NCBI RefSeq assembly: GCF_004339575.1
Contig: NZ_SMFV01000006.1
Location: forward strand, 1 to 64,000
Direction of reading: 5' to 3'
Length of the DNA: 64,000 nucleotides
Source of the DNA: Phorcysia thermohydrogeniphila
Lineage (GTDB): Bacteria; Aquificota; Aquificia; Desulfurobacteriales; Desulfurobacteriaceae
The notes under the pieces were generated by a model, which saw only the letters and a list, made by a program, of their open reading frames with translations, searched no databases and was not told the DNA's origin. The translations under genes and the position numbers were made by a program. Below, piece by piece: positions 55,863 through 64,000 of this stretch. How positions within the stretch are numbered: position 1 is the first letter of the stretch; the number at the start of each line of letters is the position of its first letter.

Positions 55863-56708
55863 TCAAAGACGGGACTTTAGAACAAGCATTGGGTCCGCCC
55901 TTACGCTGCTTACGTAAAACCCAAAGTGAAGGTGGGGTCCCGTTGACCTGCCCGTAGAGCCAACCTTTCCTATGAGCTGGCCAGCTTTTACGAACTGCCC
56001 CTCTTTAACGGTTATCTTTGAAAGGTGAGCGTAGAGGGTATGAATCCCAAGTCCGTGGTCAATTATTACGGTTTTTCCGGTAAAGTAGAGCTCCCTCGCA
56101 AGAACCACCTTGCCAGAGAGCGCAGCGTAAACGGGAGCGCCGAGGGGAGCTCTAAAATCTGTTCCCCAATGAACGGAGCGCTTTTTACCGTTGATTATCC
56201 TCTTTGCCCCAAAAGGCGTTGAGACCCTTAGTTTTTTAAGAGGCCTCCTTAGAAAAGTCTCACTAAACTTTTTCGGAGTTACCTGAGAGAAGATAGTTCG
56301 TAAAAGTTTTTGCTCTTCTTTTATCCTTTTTAGGAGCTCTGGGGGATACTTCTTCGGCTCTTTTACCCAAATTCTTGAAACCCTGTACTTTTTACGAGCA
56401 ACTTTTATAACTCTCCTATCCTTTTCCTTTCCATCCTCGTACAGAGTAACAAAAACCTTTCCTTTACTTCCGTAGGGAATTACAAAGTAAGCCTTTTCAG
56501 ACAGAACGGGAAAGGTGTATTCTCTGTTTCCGGCCTTTACTACTACTTTAGCTTTTTTAGGTATTTCCTTAAGCTTAAAGAACCCTATAGAACCGGGATA
56601 AGTGTAAGAAAGATAAAAAGGCTCAGCTGCAAGGTTCACAGGAGCAACTAAGAAAGTAAAAACAAAAACGAAAACTCCAAAAAGTTTCTTAAACAGCTTA
56701 GCCGTCAT
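55863..56708 (-). CDS. M23-family (LytM) peptidase
   Basis: A 281-residue exported protein with an N-terminal signal or anchor (LFGVFVFVFTFLVAPVNLAA), a beta-rich middle domain and the C-terminal zinc peptidase. The motifs are HWGTDFRAPLGAPVYAA (H-x3-D) and GPHLHFGFYV (HxH), with the intervening HTLYAHLSKITVKEGQ. The metal ligands are complete, so it should be an active peptidoglycan endopeptidase. It is the last of a three-gene leftward run with a lipoprotein and a small protein. Confidence 0.93.
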   Translation of the reverse strand: MTAKLFKKLFGVFVFVFTFLVAPVNLAAEPFYLSYTYPGSIGFFKLKEIPKKAKVVVKAGNREYTFPVLSEKAYFVIPYGSKGKVFVTLYEDGKEKDRRVIKVARKKYRVSRIWVKEPKKYPPELLKRIKEEQKLLRTIFSQVTPKKFSETFLRRPLKKLRVSTPFGAKRIINGKKRSVHWGTDFRAPLGAPVYAALSGKVVLARELYFTGKTVIIDHGLGIHTLYAHLSKITVKEGQFVKAGQLIGKVGSTGRSTGPHLHFGFYVSSVRADPMLVLKSRL

Positions 56709-56717
56709 CTCCTCTCT

Positions 56718-57077
56718 TCAACCTACCACTGGCTGACGGTAAGAAACAAGGAGCTCTACAAGCTGCTTTAGTTGAATCAATTTTTCCTGAGGGATAAACT
56801 TTGAATGTCTTTCAAGGTAGCTCAGAGCTCTAAGAGTCGCTCCTACATCAGAGTGAGTACCTTTAAGGAAACCTTCTAAGGTATCAACCGCATCTACAAA
56901 TTTTTTACTTTCTTTCAACCCTTTTAAAGACTCAAGATATTTTAAAGCCTCAGCAACCCGCTCCTCTAAATCAAACTTTACCGTCGCATAAGCCGTTCCT
57001 GCCGTCTCCTCTACCTTCTCACTCCCGCAGGAAACCGAAAGCAAAAGCAAAATCACCAGAGTTCCTATCTTCCTCAT
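56718..57077 (-). CDS. small helical lipoprotein
   Basis: A 119-residue protein with a signal peptide and lipobox LSVSC (Cys17). The mature part is predicted helical (VAEALKYLESLKGLKESKKF, DTLEGFLKG). The function is unknown. The ATG lies 2 bp after the upstream stop and the M23 gene follows 9 bp after its own stop, so a joint envelope role is plausible. Confidence 0.7.
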   Translation of the reverse strand: MRKIGTLVILLLLSVSCGSEKVEETAGTAYATVKFDLEERVAEALKYLESLKGLKESKKFVDAVDTLEGFLKGTHSDVGATLRALSYLERHSKFIPQEKLIQLKQLVELLVSYRQPVVG

Positions 57078-57079
57078 CC

Positions 57080-57463
57080 CTATAAGCCTCCACTTCTCAA
57101 CTCACTAACAGGTATGTTACCATCACCCTCATCCCACAACAAGTGTTGACCCACATCCTTATCTGAAGCTATTCTAATAGCAATTTCTTTACTAACACTA
57201 AAAATTCCAAAATACTTACCTACCTTTAATTCCTGCTCTTCTTGGTAGAATCTGTAAGCTTCCTTTTGTACTTCTTTATAAATCTCCTTCTTTCTTATTA
57301 ACTTCTTAACCACAGACGTTAAACCCTTATCAGTTTCCTTAGTACTTAACCGGCAAAGGACCTTAAACATAATCTTTGAAACTTGCTTTCCTACTTTAAA
57401 AGAATATTCCTTAGTTGCCTCTCTAAACTCTTTCTCCTTCCTCAACATTAGTTTCTTTTCCAA
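57080..57463 (-). CDS. hypothetical basic protein
   Basis: A 127-residue, lysine-rich soluble protein with no recognised domain. The N-terminal 80 residues look helical. The C-terminus is VGQHLLWDEGDGNIPVSELR and a few more residues. The TTG start has AGGAGG four bases upstream. It is more AT-rich than the genes to its left and sits at the edge of the dnd region, so it could belong to either unit. Confidence 0.55.
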   Translation of the reverse strand: MEKKLMLRKEKEFREATKEYSFKVGKQVSKIMFKVLCRLSTKETDKGLTSVVKKLIRKKEIYKEVQKEAYRFYQEEQELKVGKYFGIFSVSKEIAIRIASDKDVGQHLLWDEGDGNIPVSELRSGGL

Positions 57464-57673
57464 TTCTCCTCCTGACGTACACTTTAAACCTCACTAACAA
57501 TTTGCCTCAGGCAACCATCTGTTTTACTACCTCTTTAGATTAAGTCTAGAAAAATTTTCATAGTTCCGTTTTTTACCCTCTGTGATTGAGGGTTTCGGTC
57601 TTTTCCCCAGGAGATTAGTTTACTTTCTCTAGCTACACAAAATATCGTACACTATTTTCATCATTTCTCCTAT
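57464..57673. other. intergenic stretch left of the dnd promoter
   Basis: AT-rich and without a supportable ORF. It holds one small hairpin, ACCCTC (57575-57580) with GAGGGT (57588-57593), with a T-run before it and TTT after on the plus strand. It may mark the left boundary of the dnd segment. No direct repeat or attachment site was recognised. Confidence 0.4.
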
Positions 57674-57702
57674 TTGAGATTACAGGATAATGCGTGTATA
57701 AT
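57674..57702 (+). promoter_or_regulatory. promoter of the dnd operon
   Basis: TTGAGA (57674-57679), exactly 17 bases, then a perfect TATAAT (57697-57702). The expected start of transcription is around 57709, inside the inverted repeat that begins at the next base. Confidence 0.85.
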
Positions 57703-57734
57703 TATGTGGAAGTTTTACAATAAACTTCCACATA
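57703..57734. promoter_or_regulatory. perfect 13-bp inverted repeat, candidate dnd operator
   Basis: TATGTGGAAGTTT (57703-57715) and AAACTTCCACATA (57722-57734) are exact reverse complements separated by 6 bases. The repeat abuts the -10 and covers the predicted +1, the classical position for a repressor site. DndB-type proteins have been reported to repress their own operons in other bacteria, so DndB is the first candidate to bind it. A role as RNA hairpin in the leader is also possible. Confidence 0.8.
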
Positions 57735-57750
57735 TAGAATAGAGGTAACA

Positions 57751-58803
57751 GTGGGTAATTCCTACTATGTATTTCCTGCTGTCAGAGGTATTCAAGCAGG
57801 AAGAGAATTTTACACAGCAATGTGCCCTCTAAAGTTAATACCTGAGCTTTTTAAAGAAATTAATATTCCTTTAGTTCCTCCTAGATTAAGAGCACAAAGG
57901 ATTCTTAATAAAAGGAGAATTCCTGAAATTAAAAGGTATATATTAGAAAATCCATATACCTATGTTTTTTCATCAATCACTATTTCCATTGATGGAAACA
58001 TAGAATTTGAACCCGTTAGTGAAGACGACTATCAAATAGGAAAGCTCAAGATAGATAAAAGCTCAAGGGTTATAATAAATGATGGACAACATCGTATTGA
58101 AGCTATTAAGCAAGCTCTACAGGAAAATCCACGATTAGCATACGAAACCATTTCAGTCGTCATCTTCGTTGATTTAGGACTGGAAAGAAGTCAGCAGATA
58201 TTTACAGATCTCAATAGATATTCTGTAAAACCCACCCCTTCCATTAGCATTCTCTATGATTATAGAGATCAAATGGCAGAGTTAGCTAGGTATTTATCAG
58301 AAAATGTCTATTACTTTAAAGGCCTTGTTGAATATGAAAGAAGCTCTATATCCAATAGATCTCACAAACTCTTTACACTCAGTAGCATTTATCATGCTAC
58401 TAAGGAACTTTTAGGTAAGAAGGGAAATAAGATAGAAATAAGCGATGAAGACAGAATATTGTCCTTCGAGTTTTGGGAAGAAGTAGGTAGGAACATCCCT
58501 GAATGGGAAAAGATAAAGAAAGGAGAGTTAGCGGCTTACAAAGCAAGACAAGAATATATCCATTCTCATGGGCTTTTCCTTAACGCCATTGCCATGGTAG
58601 GCCGCGTAATTATTAGTAACCACTTAAGCTTGCAGGAAACTCTTTCCAAGTTGAGAGATATTAACTGGCATAGAAATAATCCCGAATGGGAAGGGATAGC
58701 TTTAAACAAAGGCAGATTAAATAAAGCTAATGTAAATATAAAGGCTACAGCAAATTTCATTCTAAAGAAAATCCTAGGAGAAAAATATGTCTTCCAGATC
58801 TAA
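57751..58803 (+). CDS. dndB: DNA phosphorothioation regulator/accessory protein DndB
   Basis: A 350-residue protein with the DGQHR motif at residues 111-115 (VIINDGQHRIEAIKQAL), followed by SVVIFVDLGLERSQQIFTDL and NRYSVKPTPS, characteristic of DndB. In known systems DndB is not needed for sulphur insertion but influences modification frequency and represses the operon. The GTG start at 57751 has AGAGGT upstream. Its end overlaps dndC by 17 bp. First gene of a four-gene operon, notably AT-rich compared with the genes to the left of 57000. Confidence 0.93.
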   Translation: MGNSYYVFPAVRGIQAGREFYTAMCPLKLIPELFKEINIPLVPPRLRAQRILNKRRIPEIKRYILENPYTYVFSSITISIDGNIEFEPVSEDDYQIGKLKIDKSSRVIINDGQHRIEAIKQALQENPRLAYETISVVIFVDLGLERSQQIFTDLNRYSVKPTPSISILYDYRDQMAELARYLSENVYYFKGLVEYERSSISNRSHKLFTLSSIYHATKELLGKKGNKIEISDEDRILSFEFWEEVGRNIPEWEKIKKGELAAYKARQEYIHSHGLFLNAIAMVGRVIISNHLSLQETLSKLRDINWHRNNPEWEGIALNKGRLNKANVNIKATANFILKKILGEKYVFQI

Positions 58804-60223
58804 GAAGATTTTCCTACTTGGAGGAAAAACTTTAGAGGATATTTACAAAGAAATTGAAAGTATTTATTTCTCAAATAGTTATCCTTGGATAGTAGGGTAC
58901 AGCGGAGGAAAGGACTCTACAGCAACATTACAATTAGTTTGGGAAGCTTTAGAAAGATTACCAAGAAACAAACTAAAGAAGCCTATATATGTACTTTCAT
59001 CTGATACATTGATAGAAATTCCTAAGGTCATAAATTACGTTGATAAAAACTTAAGTCTTATCAACAAAACTGCTAAAGAAAAAGGGTTACCTATTCAGGC
59101 AGTAAAAGTTTATCCTCGGATTTCAGATACTTTCTGGGTTAATCTGATAGGAAGGGGATATCCTGCCCCCACCAAAGAGTTTAGATGGTGCACTGATAGA
59201 TTAAAAATAGAGCCTTCAAATAGATTTGTAGTGGAAACCGTAAGTAAGTACGGGGAAGTAGTTGTTGTTTTAGGCGTTAGGAAATCCGAAAGTCTCAACA
59301 GGGAAAGGACAATAAATGAACATAAAATAGAAAACCATAGGCTATCAAGACATTCAACCCTTCCTGGAGCTCTAGTTTATACACCTATAGAAGACTGGAC
59401 CGTTGAAGATGTCTGGAACTACCTACTTAACTTTGAATCTCCATGGGGAGGAGATAACCAAGAACTATTTGAAATGTACAAACAAGCAAATGCAGGAGAA
59501 CCGCCTATTATAGTTGGAGATTTAGTCGCAGCTAACGAACAAAGTGGAGGTAACAGTAGGTTTGGTTGTTGGGTTTGCACTGTTGTAAAAAATGAAAAAT
59601 CCCTCAGTTCCCTCATTGAAAGCGGAGAAATTTGGCTAAAACCTCTTCAAAAGTTTAGAGAGATGCTTGTTGAAACTCAGGATCCAGAGAAAAAGCATAT
59701 TTACCGCGATTACAAAAGAAGAGATGGGAGTATATATTTCCTAAGAAATAGCTGCGGAGATGGCTCTAAAAAACTTGGAAGAGGTCCTTATAAGTTTGAG
59801 TACAGAAAGCTTTTTCTAGAAAAGCTTTTAGAAACTGAGAAAGAGGTAAATAAGAATAATCCTTACGAAGAAGAGATTAAATTGATATCCTTAGAGGAGC
59901 TTTTAGAAATTAGAAGAATTTGGAAGCTAGAAGAGGGAGATTGGGAAGATAGTGTTGCGAAAATTTACAAAAAGGTTTATGGAAAAGAATTAGAAATACC
60001 AAAGGAAGATGTTGGTATTTTCTCTGCAGAAGATAAGAGGCTAATAGAGTTATTAGCAGCAGAAGAAGAGATAGATCCGAGATTGATAATCAAATTGCTT
60101 AATACCTGTCAATATAACGCTTTTTCTTCAAGAAAAAGTTCCCTACTTAGGAAACTCGAAAAAATTCTTAATGAGGAGTGGAGAACAGAAGAAGAAATCT
60201 TGAGAGAGGTCAACGGGCAATGA
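58787..60223 (+). CDS. dndC: DNA phosphorothioation sulphurtransferase DndC
   Basis: A 478-residue PAPS-reductase-like ATP pyrophosphatase that activates the DNA backbone for sulphur insertion. The PP-loop is GYSGGKDSTATLQL (residues 38-51). The iron-sulphur cysteines are visible as Cys135 in EFRWCTDRLKIEP and Cys261/Cys264 in RFGCWVCTVV, with Cys323 in NSCGDGSKKL as a further candidate. The C-terminal ~150 residues are helical. The ATG overlaps dndB by 17 bp, and dndD starts within the dndC stop. Confidence 0.95.
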   Translation: MSSRSKKIFLLGGKTLEDIYKEIESIYFSNSYPWIVGYSGGKDSTATLQLVWEALERLPRNKLKKPIYVLSSDTLIEIPKVINYVDKNLSLINKTAKEKGLPIQAVKVYPRISDTFWVNLIGRGYPAPTKEFRWCTDRLKIEPSNRFVVETVSKYGEVVVVLGVRKSESLNRERTINEHKIENHRLSRHSTLPGALVYTPIEDWTVEDVWNYLLNFESPWGGDNQELFEMYKQANAGEPPIIVGDLVAANEQSGGNSRFGCWVCTVVKNEKSLSSLIESGEIWLKPLQKFREMLVETQDPEKKHIYRDYKRRDGSIYFLRNSCGDGSKKLGRGPYKFEYRKLFLEKLLETEKEVNKNNPYEEEIKLISLEELLEIRRIWKLEEGDWEDSVAKIYKKVYGKELEIPKEDVGIFSAEDKRLIELLAAEEEIDPRLIIKLLNTCQYNAFSSRKSSLLRKLEKILNEEWRTEEEILREVNGQ

Positions 60224-62154
60224 TCCTAACTTCTTTAACATTAGAAAATGTAGGTCTCTATAAAGGAAAAAATGTTTTAGATCTAAGACCAAAAGAAGGG
60301 AAAAATATTGTCTTATTTGGTGGAAAAAACGGAACTGGCAAGACTACCTTACTCGAATCTGTAAAGTTATGCTTGTACGGCAACAATATCTACGGATATA
60401 CAAAAAAACAGTATGAAGAGTTTATTAAAAAGCTTATACACAAAGGAGAAAAAAGCGCTCAAGTCACTCTTGAATTTATTTACTTTTCTTTGGAATCTCA
60501 TGACACCTACAAAGTAGTTAGAAAGTGGGATCTCGGCAAGCGTTTTAAAGAGGAATTCCTTCTTTACAAAAATGGTGAAATCTATAAAGAAATACCTAGG
60601 GAACAGTGGCAAGAGTTTATTTCTGACATTATTCCTCCTAGCTTAGTTAACTTTTTCTTTTTCGACGGAGAGAAAATAGAAAAACTCGCAGAAGATTTCT
60701 CAGAAGTTGAGTTTGTAAATGATGTTAAATCTCTCTTAGGAGTTACAGTGATAGATACTTTAAGAACAAGTTTAGATATATTGAGAAAAAGATATATTAA
60801 CCAAGAAGATGTATCCGAAGAAATAAGTCAAAAGCTTCAAGAGTTAGAGGAAAAGAGAAAAACTTTGGAGAAAGAATTAGAGAAAAAACTTCAGAGTCTT
60901 GCCGATATAGAAAATAAGAAACAAGTGTTAGAGAGGAAACTAAAAACGGCCGAAAGGGAATTTATAGAAAAAGGCGGAGAAGCTTTTAGAAGTTATGAAA
61001 GAAATAAAACAAGAAAAGAATTCTTAGAAAGTGAAATTGAAAAGATCAAGAATGAGATTAGAGAACTAGCTTCCAAAGATTTGCCTCTCGCGACAGGTAT
61101 GGATCTAGTGGAGGAACTCCTTGTACAGTTAGAGATGGAAAAAGAAATAAAAAGAATAAATTTTGAAAAAGAAATTTTGCAAAACAAGCTCAAGGAGCTT
61201 GAGAACATTTTGACTCCTCTCTCTTTGGACAAGGAAGTATTAGAGAAAATACGAAACTTATTCTCAGTCAATAAAGAAATTAAATCAGATATTATTCTCG
61301 ATCTCTCTGAAAAAGAAAACAAGACGGTAGAAGTAGTTATTCAAAATCTGAAAACTAATACTTTGGGCAAAGCTAAAAATTTATTTCTCAAGTTAGAGAA
61401 TCTAGAAGAAGAACTACTTGAAGTTGAAAGTGCTTTACAGAATGTTCCAGAGGAGGAATTTATTAAACCATATTTAGAAAAACTTTCACGGCTAGAAAGG
61501 AAAAGAATGGAATATGAAACTATAAGGAAATGCTTAGAAGAAGAAATTAGAAAACTGGAAAAAGAAAAAAACAAAGTAGAGAAGGAAATTGAAAAATTAG
61601 AAAGCTTTATCAAACAAAAGATGAAAAAGAGAATGGTTATTCATATAATAGAGAAATCCCAAAAGGTCATTGATAGATTTAGGAAAGAGTTCGTAAAGAG
61701 GAAAATAAAAATTCTCGAAAAAGAGATCCTAGATGCCTTTTACAAACTTAAAAGAAAAGAAAACTTCATAAGAGATTTACATATTAATCCAGAAACTTTT
61801 GAAATCACTCTTTTTGATGTAAACAATAGAAAAATTCCCATCGATAGACTCTCTTCAGGAGAAAGACAGATATTTGCAATATCATTCTTATGGGGACTTG
61901 CAAGAGCTTCTGGTAAAAAATTACCAGTAATCATAGATACCCCTTTGGGTAGATTAGATAATGAACATAGAGAGAACCTCGCTAAGAACTATTTCCCACA
62001 TATTAGTCATCAAGTTATTATCCTATCCACAGATGTAGAAGTAGACAAAGAACTTTTTGAGATGTTAAGAACACATATATCACACTCATACCAATTGGTC
62101 TACGACGAAGATTGTATGTGCACCAAAGTGCACAAAGGATATTTTTGGAATTAG
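60220..62154 (+). CDS. dndD: DNA phosphorothioation ATPase DndD
   Basis: A 644-residue SMC/Rad50-like ATPase. Walker A is FGGKNGTGKTTLLES (GGKNGTGKT, residues 34-42). The ABC signature is RLSSGERQIFAIS near 545 and Walker B is LPVIIDTPLGRLD near 567-580. Between them lies a long coiled coil (about 200-510). No CxxC zinc hook is seen. It is thought to drive DNA structural change during modification. The ATG at 60220 overlaps the dndC stop (ATGA); an in-frame start 42 bp earlier lies inside dndC and adds a non-conserved leader. Confidence 0.95.
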   Translation: MILTSLTLENVGLYKGKNVLDLRPKEGKNIVLFGGKNGTGKTTLLESVKLCLYGNNIYGYTKKQYEEFIKKLIHKGEKSAQVTLEFIYFSLESHDTYKVVRKWDLGKRFKEEFLLYKNGEIYKEIPREQWQEFISDIIPPSLVNFFFFDGEKIEKLAEDFSEVEFVNDVKSLLGVTVIDTLRTSLDILRKRYINQEDVSEEISQKLQELEEKRKTLEKELEKKLQSLADIENKKQVLERKLKTAEREFIEKGGEAFRSYERNKTRKEFLESEIEKIKNEIRELASKDLPLATGMDLVEELLVQLEMEKEIKRINFEKEILQNKLKELENILTPLSLDKEVLEKIRNLFSVNKEIKSDIILDLSEKENKTVEVVIQNLKTNTLGKAKNLFLKLENLEEELLEVESALQNVPEEEFIKPYLEKLSRLERKRMEYETIRKCLEEEIRKLEKEKNKVEKEIEKLESFIKQKMKKRMVIHIIEKSQKVIDRFRKEFVKRKIKILEKEILDAFYKLKRKENFIRDLHINPETFEITLFDVNNRKIPIDRLSSGERQIFAISFLWGLARASGKKLPVIIDTPLGRLDNEHRENLAKNYFPHISHQVIILSTDVEVDKELFEMLRTHISHSYQLVYDEDCMCTKVHKGYFWN

Positions 62155-62173
62155 TAGTTTTAGGAGAGAGAAA

Positions 62174-62542
62174 ATGAAGTTTAACAGGATTATCCTGGAT
62201 AAGAAAATTAGCCAAAAACTCTTCATACTAAAAGGAAGAACAGGTCTTACCCCTAATATCCTTTGCAGATTTGGCCTAATCCTTTCTTTGAAAGATCCAA
62301 CAGTACCAGATCCGAAGTGGTATAAGCAAGATGGTCAAGAGTTAATGAGACATGTATTACTTGGCGACTTAGATACTATTCTAATTTGCCTTTTTAAACA
62401 AAGAGCTTATAGGGATGGAGTAAATCTGAAAGATGAAAAACTTCTTCTTGAACTCTTTAGAGCTCATATAAACAGAGGAGCAGAGCTCCTCTATAATAGG
62501 ATTAAGAATCTTAGTAGCATAAAAGAATTAATTGACTTATAA
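62174..62542 (+). CDS. dndE: DNA sulphur modification protein DndE
   Basis: A 122-residue small basic protein. KLFILKGRTGLTPNILCRFG, LILSLKDPTVPDP and LFRAHINRGAELLYNRIKN match DndE, which in structural work forms tetramers that bind nicked DNA. The ATG lies 19 bp after dndD with GGAGAGA upstream. It ends 12 bp from the convergent DUF262 gene. No dndF, G or H follows on this strand. Confidence 0.93.
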   Translation: MKFNRIILDKKISQKLFILKGRTGLTPNILCRFGLILSLKDPTVPDPKWYKQDGQELMRHVLLGDLDTILICLFKQRAYRDGVNLKDEKLLLELFRAHINRGAELLYNRIKNLSSIKELIDL

Positions 62543-62554
62543 TTCCAATACTTC

Positions 62555-64000
62555 TTAATCAAAATAGGAAAGCTTAAAATTACTACCATTATTATCTATT
62601 AAAATGAATTTTAAAAGACCCTTGAAAGCTTTAGATCTATTTTCAATTGCCTCTTTTCCCCACATTTCTTCTTCACCTAAAGGTCTAAAAAATTCATGGA
62701 ACTTTTGTCTATAGACTCTATATTCATGCGTTCCGTCAACAATTTCTTCTTTTATTGAGCGGGTAATATATATATTTTGATTACTCTTTAGGGCATTTAT
62801 TTTCTCTTCAAAACAACTATTTCTACTGGAAGAATTAAAAGATCTATCCACTAAAGTTAAATTTCCTATTCTATGAACATAGTTTTTATAATTTTCCTCT
62901 GTAATATCCGAATATCTACATTCCCCAAAGTTAGGAGTCTGAGGTAAGATATGCTCAACCGAAATATTGTTACTATCTACCTTTGTACCTTCAAGATGAT
63001 AGTTTGCAATACTCAGTAGTAACTTAGTTAACTTCTTCTTCTTTCTATACAGGGGTAAAACTTCTATATTTGTCTCAAAATCACTTAGGTAAGAATCTAT
63101 CTTCTCAGAAATCCAACTATTTACCTTTTCTATGTTTCCACTTTCAGTTACAATGGTTTTACAAAGTTCAGGTACAATTTCACTAAGCTTTTTGGTCTTA
63201 TCTGCAATCATGTAGACAACAGCTAATCTTAGTATCATTAAGAGAATCCTTTTCTTATGGAACTCAAAATCTCCTTCTCCTAAAACCTCGTAAAAAGACA
63301 AAAGTATCTTAAAACCTAAATTGAAATTTATCAAATTTAGATATTTCTGCACAAGAGTATCTCTCTTGAGCTCCTTATATTTGGCAGCAACCCTAATTAA
63401 ATCACCTAATAAACTCAGAGAGTCTTCATAATTTTCTGTCCTTAACGCCTTGAAAGTAGTAAAAATCGGGTTATTTCCTCTAGATACTATCTCTATACCT
63501 TTTATAGTTAAGTAATCCTCTAAAAACTCCCTTGGCTGGATCTTAGTTCTAGAAGGATTAATATTGTTAATGATTTCTAATAACCTTTCCCATTCAGTAG
63601 AAAGAGTACTATACTCTGTTTCATTAGCAGAAAAAAACAAAAAGTTCTTCAAAAGATCCTCAGGCTTTAAAGTAATTCCACTATCATTTAGTTTTTCAAA
63701 AACAAGAAAACCAGTATCCACATCATTAGTTTTCGTTACAACAAGCTTAGTATTATTTAAAAATTGATCACAAAAGTCCAAAAGAGTCCCCTCATCTTTA
63801 TCAGAAAAGAAAGAGTCTATTTCGCACACTATATTAAGTAAGTTCTTCTGATATTCATTCAAAGGAAAGTCAAAAACATCCTCCAAACTTTTATTAGAGC
63901 ACAAATCACACCTATTCTCACCATCTAACAGTAAATTAATTACCCTTTCAAAGACAGGTGCCAGCGAATCATTCCGCTCAACAATATAGCTACGTTCAAC
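62555..64000 (-). CDS. DUF262/DUF1524 protein (SspE/GmrSD-like), N-terminus beyond the window
   Basis: The visible 481 residues are the C-terminal part. The frame is open to base 64000, so the TTG at 63904 is not the true start. Late DUF262 is seen in FEKLNDSGITLKPEDLLKNF. The C-terminal DUF1524 HNH-like nuclease is seen in ISVEHILPQTPNFG (His and Pro of HxxP) and VHRIGNLTLVDRSFNSSSRN (GNLTL plus Asn). The NTPase DGQQR motif expected in DUF262 would lie off the right edge. This architecture is that of GmrS-GmrD fusions and of SspE, the effector of Ssp phosphorothioate defence. Its convergent position 12 bp from dndE suggests a phosphorothioate-linked restriction role; that is inference. Confidence 0.85.
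   Translation of the reverse strand, partial: VERSYIVERNDSLAPVFERVINLLLDGENRCDLCSNKSLEDVFDFPLNEYQKNLLNIVCEIDSFFSDKDEGTLLDFCDQFLNNTKLVVTKTNDVDTGFLVFEKLNDSGITLKPEDLLKNFLFFSANETEYSTLSTEWERLLEIINNINPSRTKIQPREFLEDYLTIKGIEIVSRGNNPIFTTFKALRTENYEDSLSLLGDLIRVAAKYKELKRDTLVQKYLNLINFNLGFKILLSFYEVLGEGDFEFHKKRILLMILRLAVVYMIADKTKKLSEIVPELCKTIVTESGNIEKVNSWISEKIDSYLSDFETNIEVLPLYRKKKKLTKLLLSIANYHLEGTKVDSNNISVEHILPQTPNFGECRYSDITEENYKNYVHRIGNLTLVDRSFNSSSRNSCFEEKINALKSNQNIYITRSIKEEIVDGTHEYRVYRQKFHEFFRPLGEEEMWGKEAIENRSKAFKGLLKFILIDNNGSNFKLSYFD

What the first reader, a model, noticed from the sequence alone, without database searches (positions are those of the whole stretch)
57751..64000. dndBCDE operon facing a DUF262/DUF1524 effector instead of dndFGH
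The sequence shows a complete dndB-C-D-E set with intact catalytic motifs. Twelve bases away is a convergent gene with DUF262 and DUF1524 (HNH-like) features. Known Dnd defence usually pairs BCDE with DndFGH or PbeABCD, while DUF262-DUF1524 SspE belongs to the SspABCD system. A Dnd module joined to an SspE-like effector would be a hybrid phosphorothioate-sensing system, here in an apparent thermophile. An alternative is that the DUF262 protein is a type IV enzyme against other modified phage DNA that merely sits nearby.
Basis: partly seen in the sequence, partly recalled or inferred. Interest (0 to 1): 0.78.

Follow-up and report, generated by a model that had tools for sequence, protein, structure and literature searches.

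The report
Dnd DNA-sulfur operon with DndI-like nuclease
This small bacterial genome carries genes that tag its own DNA with sulfur, sitting end to end with a nuclease gene that probably uses the tag to spare self DNA and cut phage DNA; the pairing is real, but a system of this kind (DndBCDE-DndI) was published in 2024, so it is a new example rather than a new kind of immunity.

Summary
dndB, dndC, dndD and dndE are complete, score above the curated family cut-offs and keep their catalytic motifs. Twelve bases after dndE lies a convergent DUF262-DUF1524 gene. I read it past the window edge: it is 636 aa, with PRYQRRY, DGQQR and HNH residues intact. No dndFGH or Pbe genes adjoin it. A whole-genome search found no dptH, with positive controls, and no true PbeA.

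The two parts look acquired together. The DUF262 gene and dndD are the two lowest-GC ORFs of 69 on the contig, and a same-genus genome lacks both in one gap. In three related dnd loci a convergent gene also ends within about 30 bp of the dndE stop. In two of these it is a different DUF262 protein; in the third it is a GHKL ATPase.

The "hybrid" is already known. Salmonella IscS-DndBCDE-DndI uses a DUF262-DUF1524 effector, and 61 genomes have dndBCD+dndI without dndFGH (PMC11662687). The protein here is no closer to DndI than to SspE, and its best sequence relatives are not dnd-linked, so DndI orthology is unproven.

One oddity is that the genome shows no recognisable cysteine desulfurase, so the sulfur donor is unclear.

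Verdict: probable DndBCDE-DndI-like defence locus; a new member of a known kind.

The parts
57751..58803 (+). dndB: DGQHR/ParB-superfamily DndB, likely regulator of the modification operon
   Evidence: TIGR03233 413.8 bits against cut-off 328; Pfam DndB 8e-121; DGQHR motif aligned
58787..60223 (+). dndC: PAPS-reductase-like sulfurtransferase with SGGKDS loop and the conserved cysteines
   Evidence: TIGR03183 513.6 bits against cut-off 290; motifs aligned with E. coli DndC
60220..62154 (+). dndD: ABC/SMC-like ATPase; the GTG at 60178 is a longer alternative start, but the profile starts at the ATG at 60220, which overlaps the dndC stop
   Evidence: TIGR03185 544.3 bits against cut-off 246, match from residue 15 of the longer reading; Walker A, signature and Walker B aligned
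62174..62542 (+). dndE
   Evidence: TIGR03184 85.2 bits against cut-off 71.9; Pfam DndE 2e-23
62555..64000 (-). DUF262-DUF1524 (GmrSD_N + GmrSD_C) putative nuclease, DndI-like effector; residues 156-636 lie in the window and the gene continues to contig position 64465. HNH His505 codon at 62953-62951, Asn544 codon at 62836-62834; the PRYQRRY (32-38) and DGQQR (93-97) motifs lie beyond the window edge
   Evidence: full ORF; Pfam; motif alignment with DndI (9JFL); PDB search
57464..57750 (.). intergenic region upstream of dndB, divergent from the 127-aa gene; best promoter-like site at window about 57674-57702 (11 of 12 matches, but the total of such sites is no more than chance)
56112..64000 (.). 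variable block absent from the same-genus genome G001; on the assembly it spans 56112-64907 and holds dndBCDE + DUF262 plus the 5' part of the M23 gene and two small genes; the dnd/DUF262 part is about 30-38% GC against 43.8% mean for ORFs on the contig
   Evidence: blastn empty-site comparison; ORFs of L049; GC ranks

Best explanation
The locus is a single-effector phosphorothioate (PT) defence system that works like Salmonella IscS-DndBCDE-DndI. DndC, DndD and DndE put PT marks in the host's DNA, with DndB regulating this. The convergent DUF262-DUF1524 protein is the restriction part: an NTP-hydrolysing N-terminal domain that senses PT controls a C-terminal HNH nickase, so that PT-marked self DNA is released and unmarked phage DNA is nicked. 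Shown here: intact genes and motifs, adjacency, shared foreign composition, absence of both from a relative as one gap, and absence of the other Dnd restriction modules. Inferred: PT modification itself, PT sensing by the effector, nuclease activity, and phage restriction.
For: Equivalog-level dndBCDE. Complete DUF262-DUF1524 protein with P32-Y34-Q35-R36, D93GQQR97, H505 and N544 aligned to DndI P23-Y25-Q26, D83GQQR87, H508 and N541, the residues named for DndI in PMC11662687 apart from H508. phmmer match to the DndI structure 9JFL at E=2.7e-15. No dptH in the whole genome, while two control records with known dptH give over 1300 bits; TIGR03236 also silent, though without a positive control. 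PbeA absent: 45 bits from a generic helicase against 593 and 767 bits in G008 and G041. DUF262 gene rank 1, dndD rank 2, dndB rank 4 and dndC rank 7 lowest GC of 69 ORFs on the contig. In same-genus G001, homology jumps from an M23-gene remnant (contig 56111) straight to 64908, so dndBCDE and DUF262 are missing together. In G008, G041 and L016 a convergent gene overlaps the end of dndE by about 20-30 bp; in G008 and L016 it is a DUF262 protein. Precedent: DndBCDE + DndI restricts phages in E. coli (PMC11662687).
Against: The motifs shared with DndI, including the PT-sensing Tyr, also occur in DUF262 proteins that are not next to dnd genes. The best sequence relatives found are not dnd-linked, and one of them matches DndI better (63.6 bits) than this protein does. 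No second genome was found with the same DUF262 family beside dnd. The modification half may be incomplete, since no cysteine desulfurase was recognised in the genome.
Confidence: 0.62

Rival explanations
1. The DUF262-DUF1524 protein is an independent type IV-like enzyme (GmrSD/BrxU manner) against phage DNA with modified bases, carried in the same defence island but not coupled to PT.
For: Its nearest sequence relatives sit apart from dnd genes. The key motifs are general to DUF262 proteins. The genome has two other DUF262 genes away from dnd, one closest to BrxU. The gene has its own strand, so no shared transcript is implied.
Against: 12-bp convergent packing, matched GC, joint absence in the same genus, and a convergent gene in the same slot in three related dnd loci. 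BrxU was not among its PDB hits at E<=0.01, whereas SspE and DndI were.
Confidence: 0.25
2. An SspE-like mode: PT activates the effector's nuclease (harmless without PT), here with Dnd double-strand marks as the trigger.
For: SspE (6JIV/7DRS) is as close as DndI in the PDB search (59.9 against 59.0 bits). Both use the same Tyr pocket (PMC11662687).
Against: SspE is described with SspABCD single-strand CCA marks, and no ssp genes were seen in the locus. The length of 636 aa is nearer DndI (596) than SspE (771-818).
Confidence: 0.15
3. Decayed or chance neighbourhood: dndBCDE is a modification remnant and the DUF262 gene an unrelated neighbour in a turnover hot spot.
For: The site is variable: G001 has a two-ORF insert that resembles a toxin-antitoxin pair (by eye) and an M23 remnant there. 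No desulfurase was recognised.
Against: All five frames are intact with catalytic motifs. The effector slot recurs in relatives.
Confidence: 0.08

Closest known systems
IscS-DndBCDE-DndI of Salmonella enterica Cerro 87 (PMC11662687; structure 9JFL)
   Same: dndBCDE with a DUF262-DUF1524 effector gene beside it; motif residues for PT sensing, NTP hydrolysis and HNH catalysis conserved; a dndFGH-free form exists in 61 of 568 dndBCD genomes in that survey
   Different: in Salmonella dndI is co-transcribed with dndFGH; here dndFGH is absent, sequence identity to DndI is low (36% over 80 residues at best), DndI is not the closest relative, and no IscS was recognised
SspABCD-SspE
   Same: DUF262-DUF1524 effector; SspE is the top PDB match
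   Different: modification genes here are dndBCDE, not sspABCD; the protein is 636 aa against 771-818 aa
DndBCDE with DndFGH (DptFGH)
   Same: same modification genes, with the restriction genes lying next to and facing the dndE end in E. coli and Aliivibrio loci
   Different: no dptH anywhere in this genome
Dnd-Pbe loci of related genomes G008 and G041
   Same: dndBCDE 55-89% identical, with a convergent gene overlapping the dndE end
   Different: those carry PbeA, PbeC and a small protein plus a 710-aa DUF262 or a GHKL ATPase; here only the DUF262-DUF1524 gene is present
GmrSD/BrxU type IV enzymes and PADLOC HEC-06
   Same: same two Pfam domains; HEC-06 is the best PADLOC match of the part in the window
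   Different: the HEC-06 label carries no mechanism in that library, and the relatives found here are not dnd-linked

Membership tests
Dnd phosphorothioation module | DndC, DndD and DndE present with catalytic motifs | tested here: met
   NCBIfam equivalog cut-offs exceeded; motifs aligned
Dnd phosphorothioation module | cysteine desulfurase (DndA or IscS) as sulfur donor | tested here: inconclusive
   none found: no desulfurase among the locus genes, and the only class-V aminotransferase in the genome at E<=1e-10 is aspartate/serine-glyoxylate-like; but this is a single profile search on a 99.4% complete genome
Dnd phosphorothioation module | PT present in genomic DNA | not testable with these tools
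   needs LC-MS or iodine cleavage
DndI-type effector | N-terminal DUF262 plus C-terminal DUF1524 HNH in one protein | tested here: met
   Pfam over both cut-offs
DndI-type effector | gene beside dndBCDE | tested here: met
   12 bp from dndE, convergent
DndI-type effector | Tyr of the PT pocket, DGQQR, HNH His/Asn | tested here: met
   not diagnostic, since unlinked DUF262 proteins share them
DndI-type effector | closer in sequence to DndI than to other DUF262 proteins | tested here: not met
   SspE 59.9 against DndI 59.0 bits; unlinked relatives score 83-108 bits in pairwise BLAST against 63 for DndI (DndI sequence partial)
DndI-type effector | PT-stimulated ATPase and PT-relieved nicking | not testable with these tools
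   biochemistry needed
DndFGH-coupled Dnd system | dndF/G/H in the genome | tested here: not met
   TIGR03237 (DptH) zero matches in the genome with positive controls; TIGR03236 zero, but its controls were silent too
Pbe-coupled Dnd system | PbeA helicase-nuclease in the genome | tested here: not met
   45 bits from a generic helicase against 593-767 bits in carriers
SspABCD-SspE | sspABCD modification genes with the effector | tested here: not met
   DndC scores 607 bits on DndC models against 42 on SspD; no other ssp genes in the locus

The most novel reading that the evidence does not exclude
A Dnd system that runs without any cysteine desulfurase, with DndC taking sulfur from free sulfide (as SMS-type Fe-S assembly does in Methanocaldococcus, PMC12192291), and that is read by a single DUF262-HNH effector of a lineage separate from DndI and SspE.
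Probability: 0.15. Interest if true: 0.7.

Novelty: new member of a known kind. Interest (0 to 1): 0.4.

Why it matters
If it works as proposed, it extends single-gene DndI-type restriction to a probable thermophile (thermophily inferred, not tested) and to a DUF262 lineage not tested so far. It would also show that the position facing dndE in these bacteria is a slot for exchangeable effectors. A heat-stable two-part system would be convenient for biochemistry of PT sensing. The apparent lack of a cysteine desulfurase, if confirmed, raises a clean question about where the sulfur in PT comes from.

Tried and rejected
TIGR03236 as a dndFGH probe: uninformative alone because its controls were silent; replaced by TIGR03237 with known carriers. 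Orthologue hunt for the DUF262 protein: no relative among viral contigs; only about 25-40% local matches in 60 related genomes, 395 genomes of another phylum, and plasmids. Use of the PT-sensing Tyr as proof of PT sensing: rejected because unlinked DUF262 proteins have it. E. coli reference dndI: three annotated E. coli loci and one unannotated one held no full-length DUF262-DUF1524 protein, so the 9JFL alignment text was used instead. Promoter and terminator scan: counts no higher than in shuffled sequence. A meaning for the PADLOC label Orf5 was not found in the papers.

Full report
What is there. The four + strand genes at 57751-62542 are dndB, dndC, dndD and dndE. All pass NCBIfam equivalog cut-offs and keep the motifs expected of each. 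dndD is best started at the ATG at 60220. The gene facing dndE, 12 bases away, is cut by the window edge. On contig C6 of the source genome (1.62 Mb, 8 contigs, 99.4% complete) it runs from 64465 to 62555 and encodes 636 aa. It has a DUF262 (GmrSD_N) domain at E=6.9e-35 and a DUF1524 (GmrSD_C) domain at E=4.7e-22, with PRYQRRY at residues 32-38, DGQQR at 93-97, and HNH residues His505 and Asn544 that align with DndI His508 and Asn541.

What is not there. The flank beyond 64000 has a PD-(D/E)XK gene, an MntA/HepT-like pair, proS, a glycosyltransferase and dnaA. DptH (TIGR03237) gives no match in the genome, while two plasmids with known dptH give over 1300 bits. PbeA gives only a generic helicase match of 45 bits, against 593 and 767 bits in two related genomes that do carry Pbe genes. 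There is no dndA in the locus. The only class-V aminotransferase in the genome at E<=1e-10 is of the aspartate/serine-glyoxylate type, not a cysteine desulfurase. This rests on one profile search, so a missed or unassembled gene remains possible. M. jannaschii, which has no desulfurase according to PMC12192291, also rings in that control set, so the controls do not test desulfurases specifically.

Evidence that the two parts belong together. First, GC content: the DUF262 gene (31.7%), dndD (32.1%), dndB (34.9%) and dndC (35.9%) rank 1, 2, 4 and 7 lowest of 69 ORFs of 150 aa or more on the contig, whose mean is 43.8%. Second, in same-genus genome G001 the flanking phosphoribosyltransferase, PD-(D/E)XK, MntA/HepT-like, proS and dnaA genes are conserved at 82-94% protein identity. 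Between them G001 has only a short insert of two ORFs, which looks like a toxin-antitoxin pair by eye, and a 100-bp remnant of the M23 gene. The alignment jumps from contig position 56111 to 64908, so dndBCDE and the DUF262 gene are missing together. This is equally compatible with gain here or loss there. Third, dndC is rare in the phylum (3 of 136 genomes over the cut-off), and in the related dnd loci a convergent gene overlaps the end of dndE by about 20-30 bp. In G008 and in L016, a contig from a MAG labelled Methanocaldococcaceae (dndC 85% identical), it is a 710-aa DUF262 protein of another family, frame-disrupted in L016. In G041 it is a 623-aa GHKL ATPase. G008 and G041 carry PbeA and PbeC behind it. 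This looks like an exchangeable effector slot, though it rests on four loci.

Evidence that limits the claim. The protein is no closer to DndI (59.0 bits) than to SspE (59.9 bits) among solved structures. A DUF262 protein from a genome where it has no dnd neighbour matches DndI better (63.6 bits). The best relatives of the window protein, at 25-27% identity, are not dnd-linked within the stretches read. The Tyr of the PT pocket and DGQQR occur in several of them. Sequence therefore supports a DUF262-HNH nuclease but cannot by itself show PT sensing. The genome has two further DUF262 genes away from dnd, one closest to BrxU and one closest to DndI.

Comparison with what is known. In Salmonella, IscS-DndBCDE with DndI, a DUF262-DUF1524 protein, is an antiphage system by itself. 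PT raises DndI's ATPase and helps it leave self DNA, DndI nicks unmodified DNA, and DndI is toxic without PT. That survey found 61 genomes with dndBCD and dndI but no dndFGH (PMC11662687). A separate survey showed that dndABCDE is commonly decoupled from dndFGH and that other nucleases sit beside it (PMC10853773). The present locus fits this known kind.

Most likely working. DndCDE mark host DNA with PT and DndB regulates this. The DUF262-DUF1524 protein scans DNA, hydrolyses NTP on meeting PT and lets go, and nicks DNA without PT. The marking and sensing steps are inferred from homology and from the Salmonella precedent; none was tested here. The main rival is an unlinked type IV-like enzyme that happens to share the island.

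Noticed in passing
whole genome; G000:C3:109004-109957 (L060): No cysteine desulfurase recognised in a genome that has dndBCDE; the only class-V aminotransferase at E<=1e-10 is glyoxylate-aminotransferase-like. The three related dnd loci also lack an adjacent dndA, whereas Geobacter, Rhizobium, Ruegeria and Halorubrum loci have a desulfurase gene next to dndE.
   Followed up: partly
L021:326-7373 and L022:11885-18656: Related genomes G008 and G041 carry dndBCDE facing PbeA, PbeC and a dnd_assoc_4-like small protein; the gene touching dndE differs (710-aa DUF262 against 623-aa GHKL ATPase). PbeA in G008 is split into two ORFs.
   Followed up: partly
L016:1-12983: Contig from a MAG labelled Methanocaldococcaceae with dndBCDE 72-87% identical to the window and a DUF262 gene broken by a frame change; either transfer between vent organisms or a mis-binned bacterial contig.
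   Followed up: no
L048:19117-21850: E. coli PK8566 has an ATP-dependent nuclease gene and a 396-aa DUF262 gene between dndE and dptHGF.
   Followed up: no
L008:6442-8247 and L009:10017-11618: Two further DUF262 genes in the same genome, away from dnd; one closest to BrxU among solved structures, the other to DndI.
   Followed up: partly
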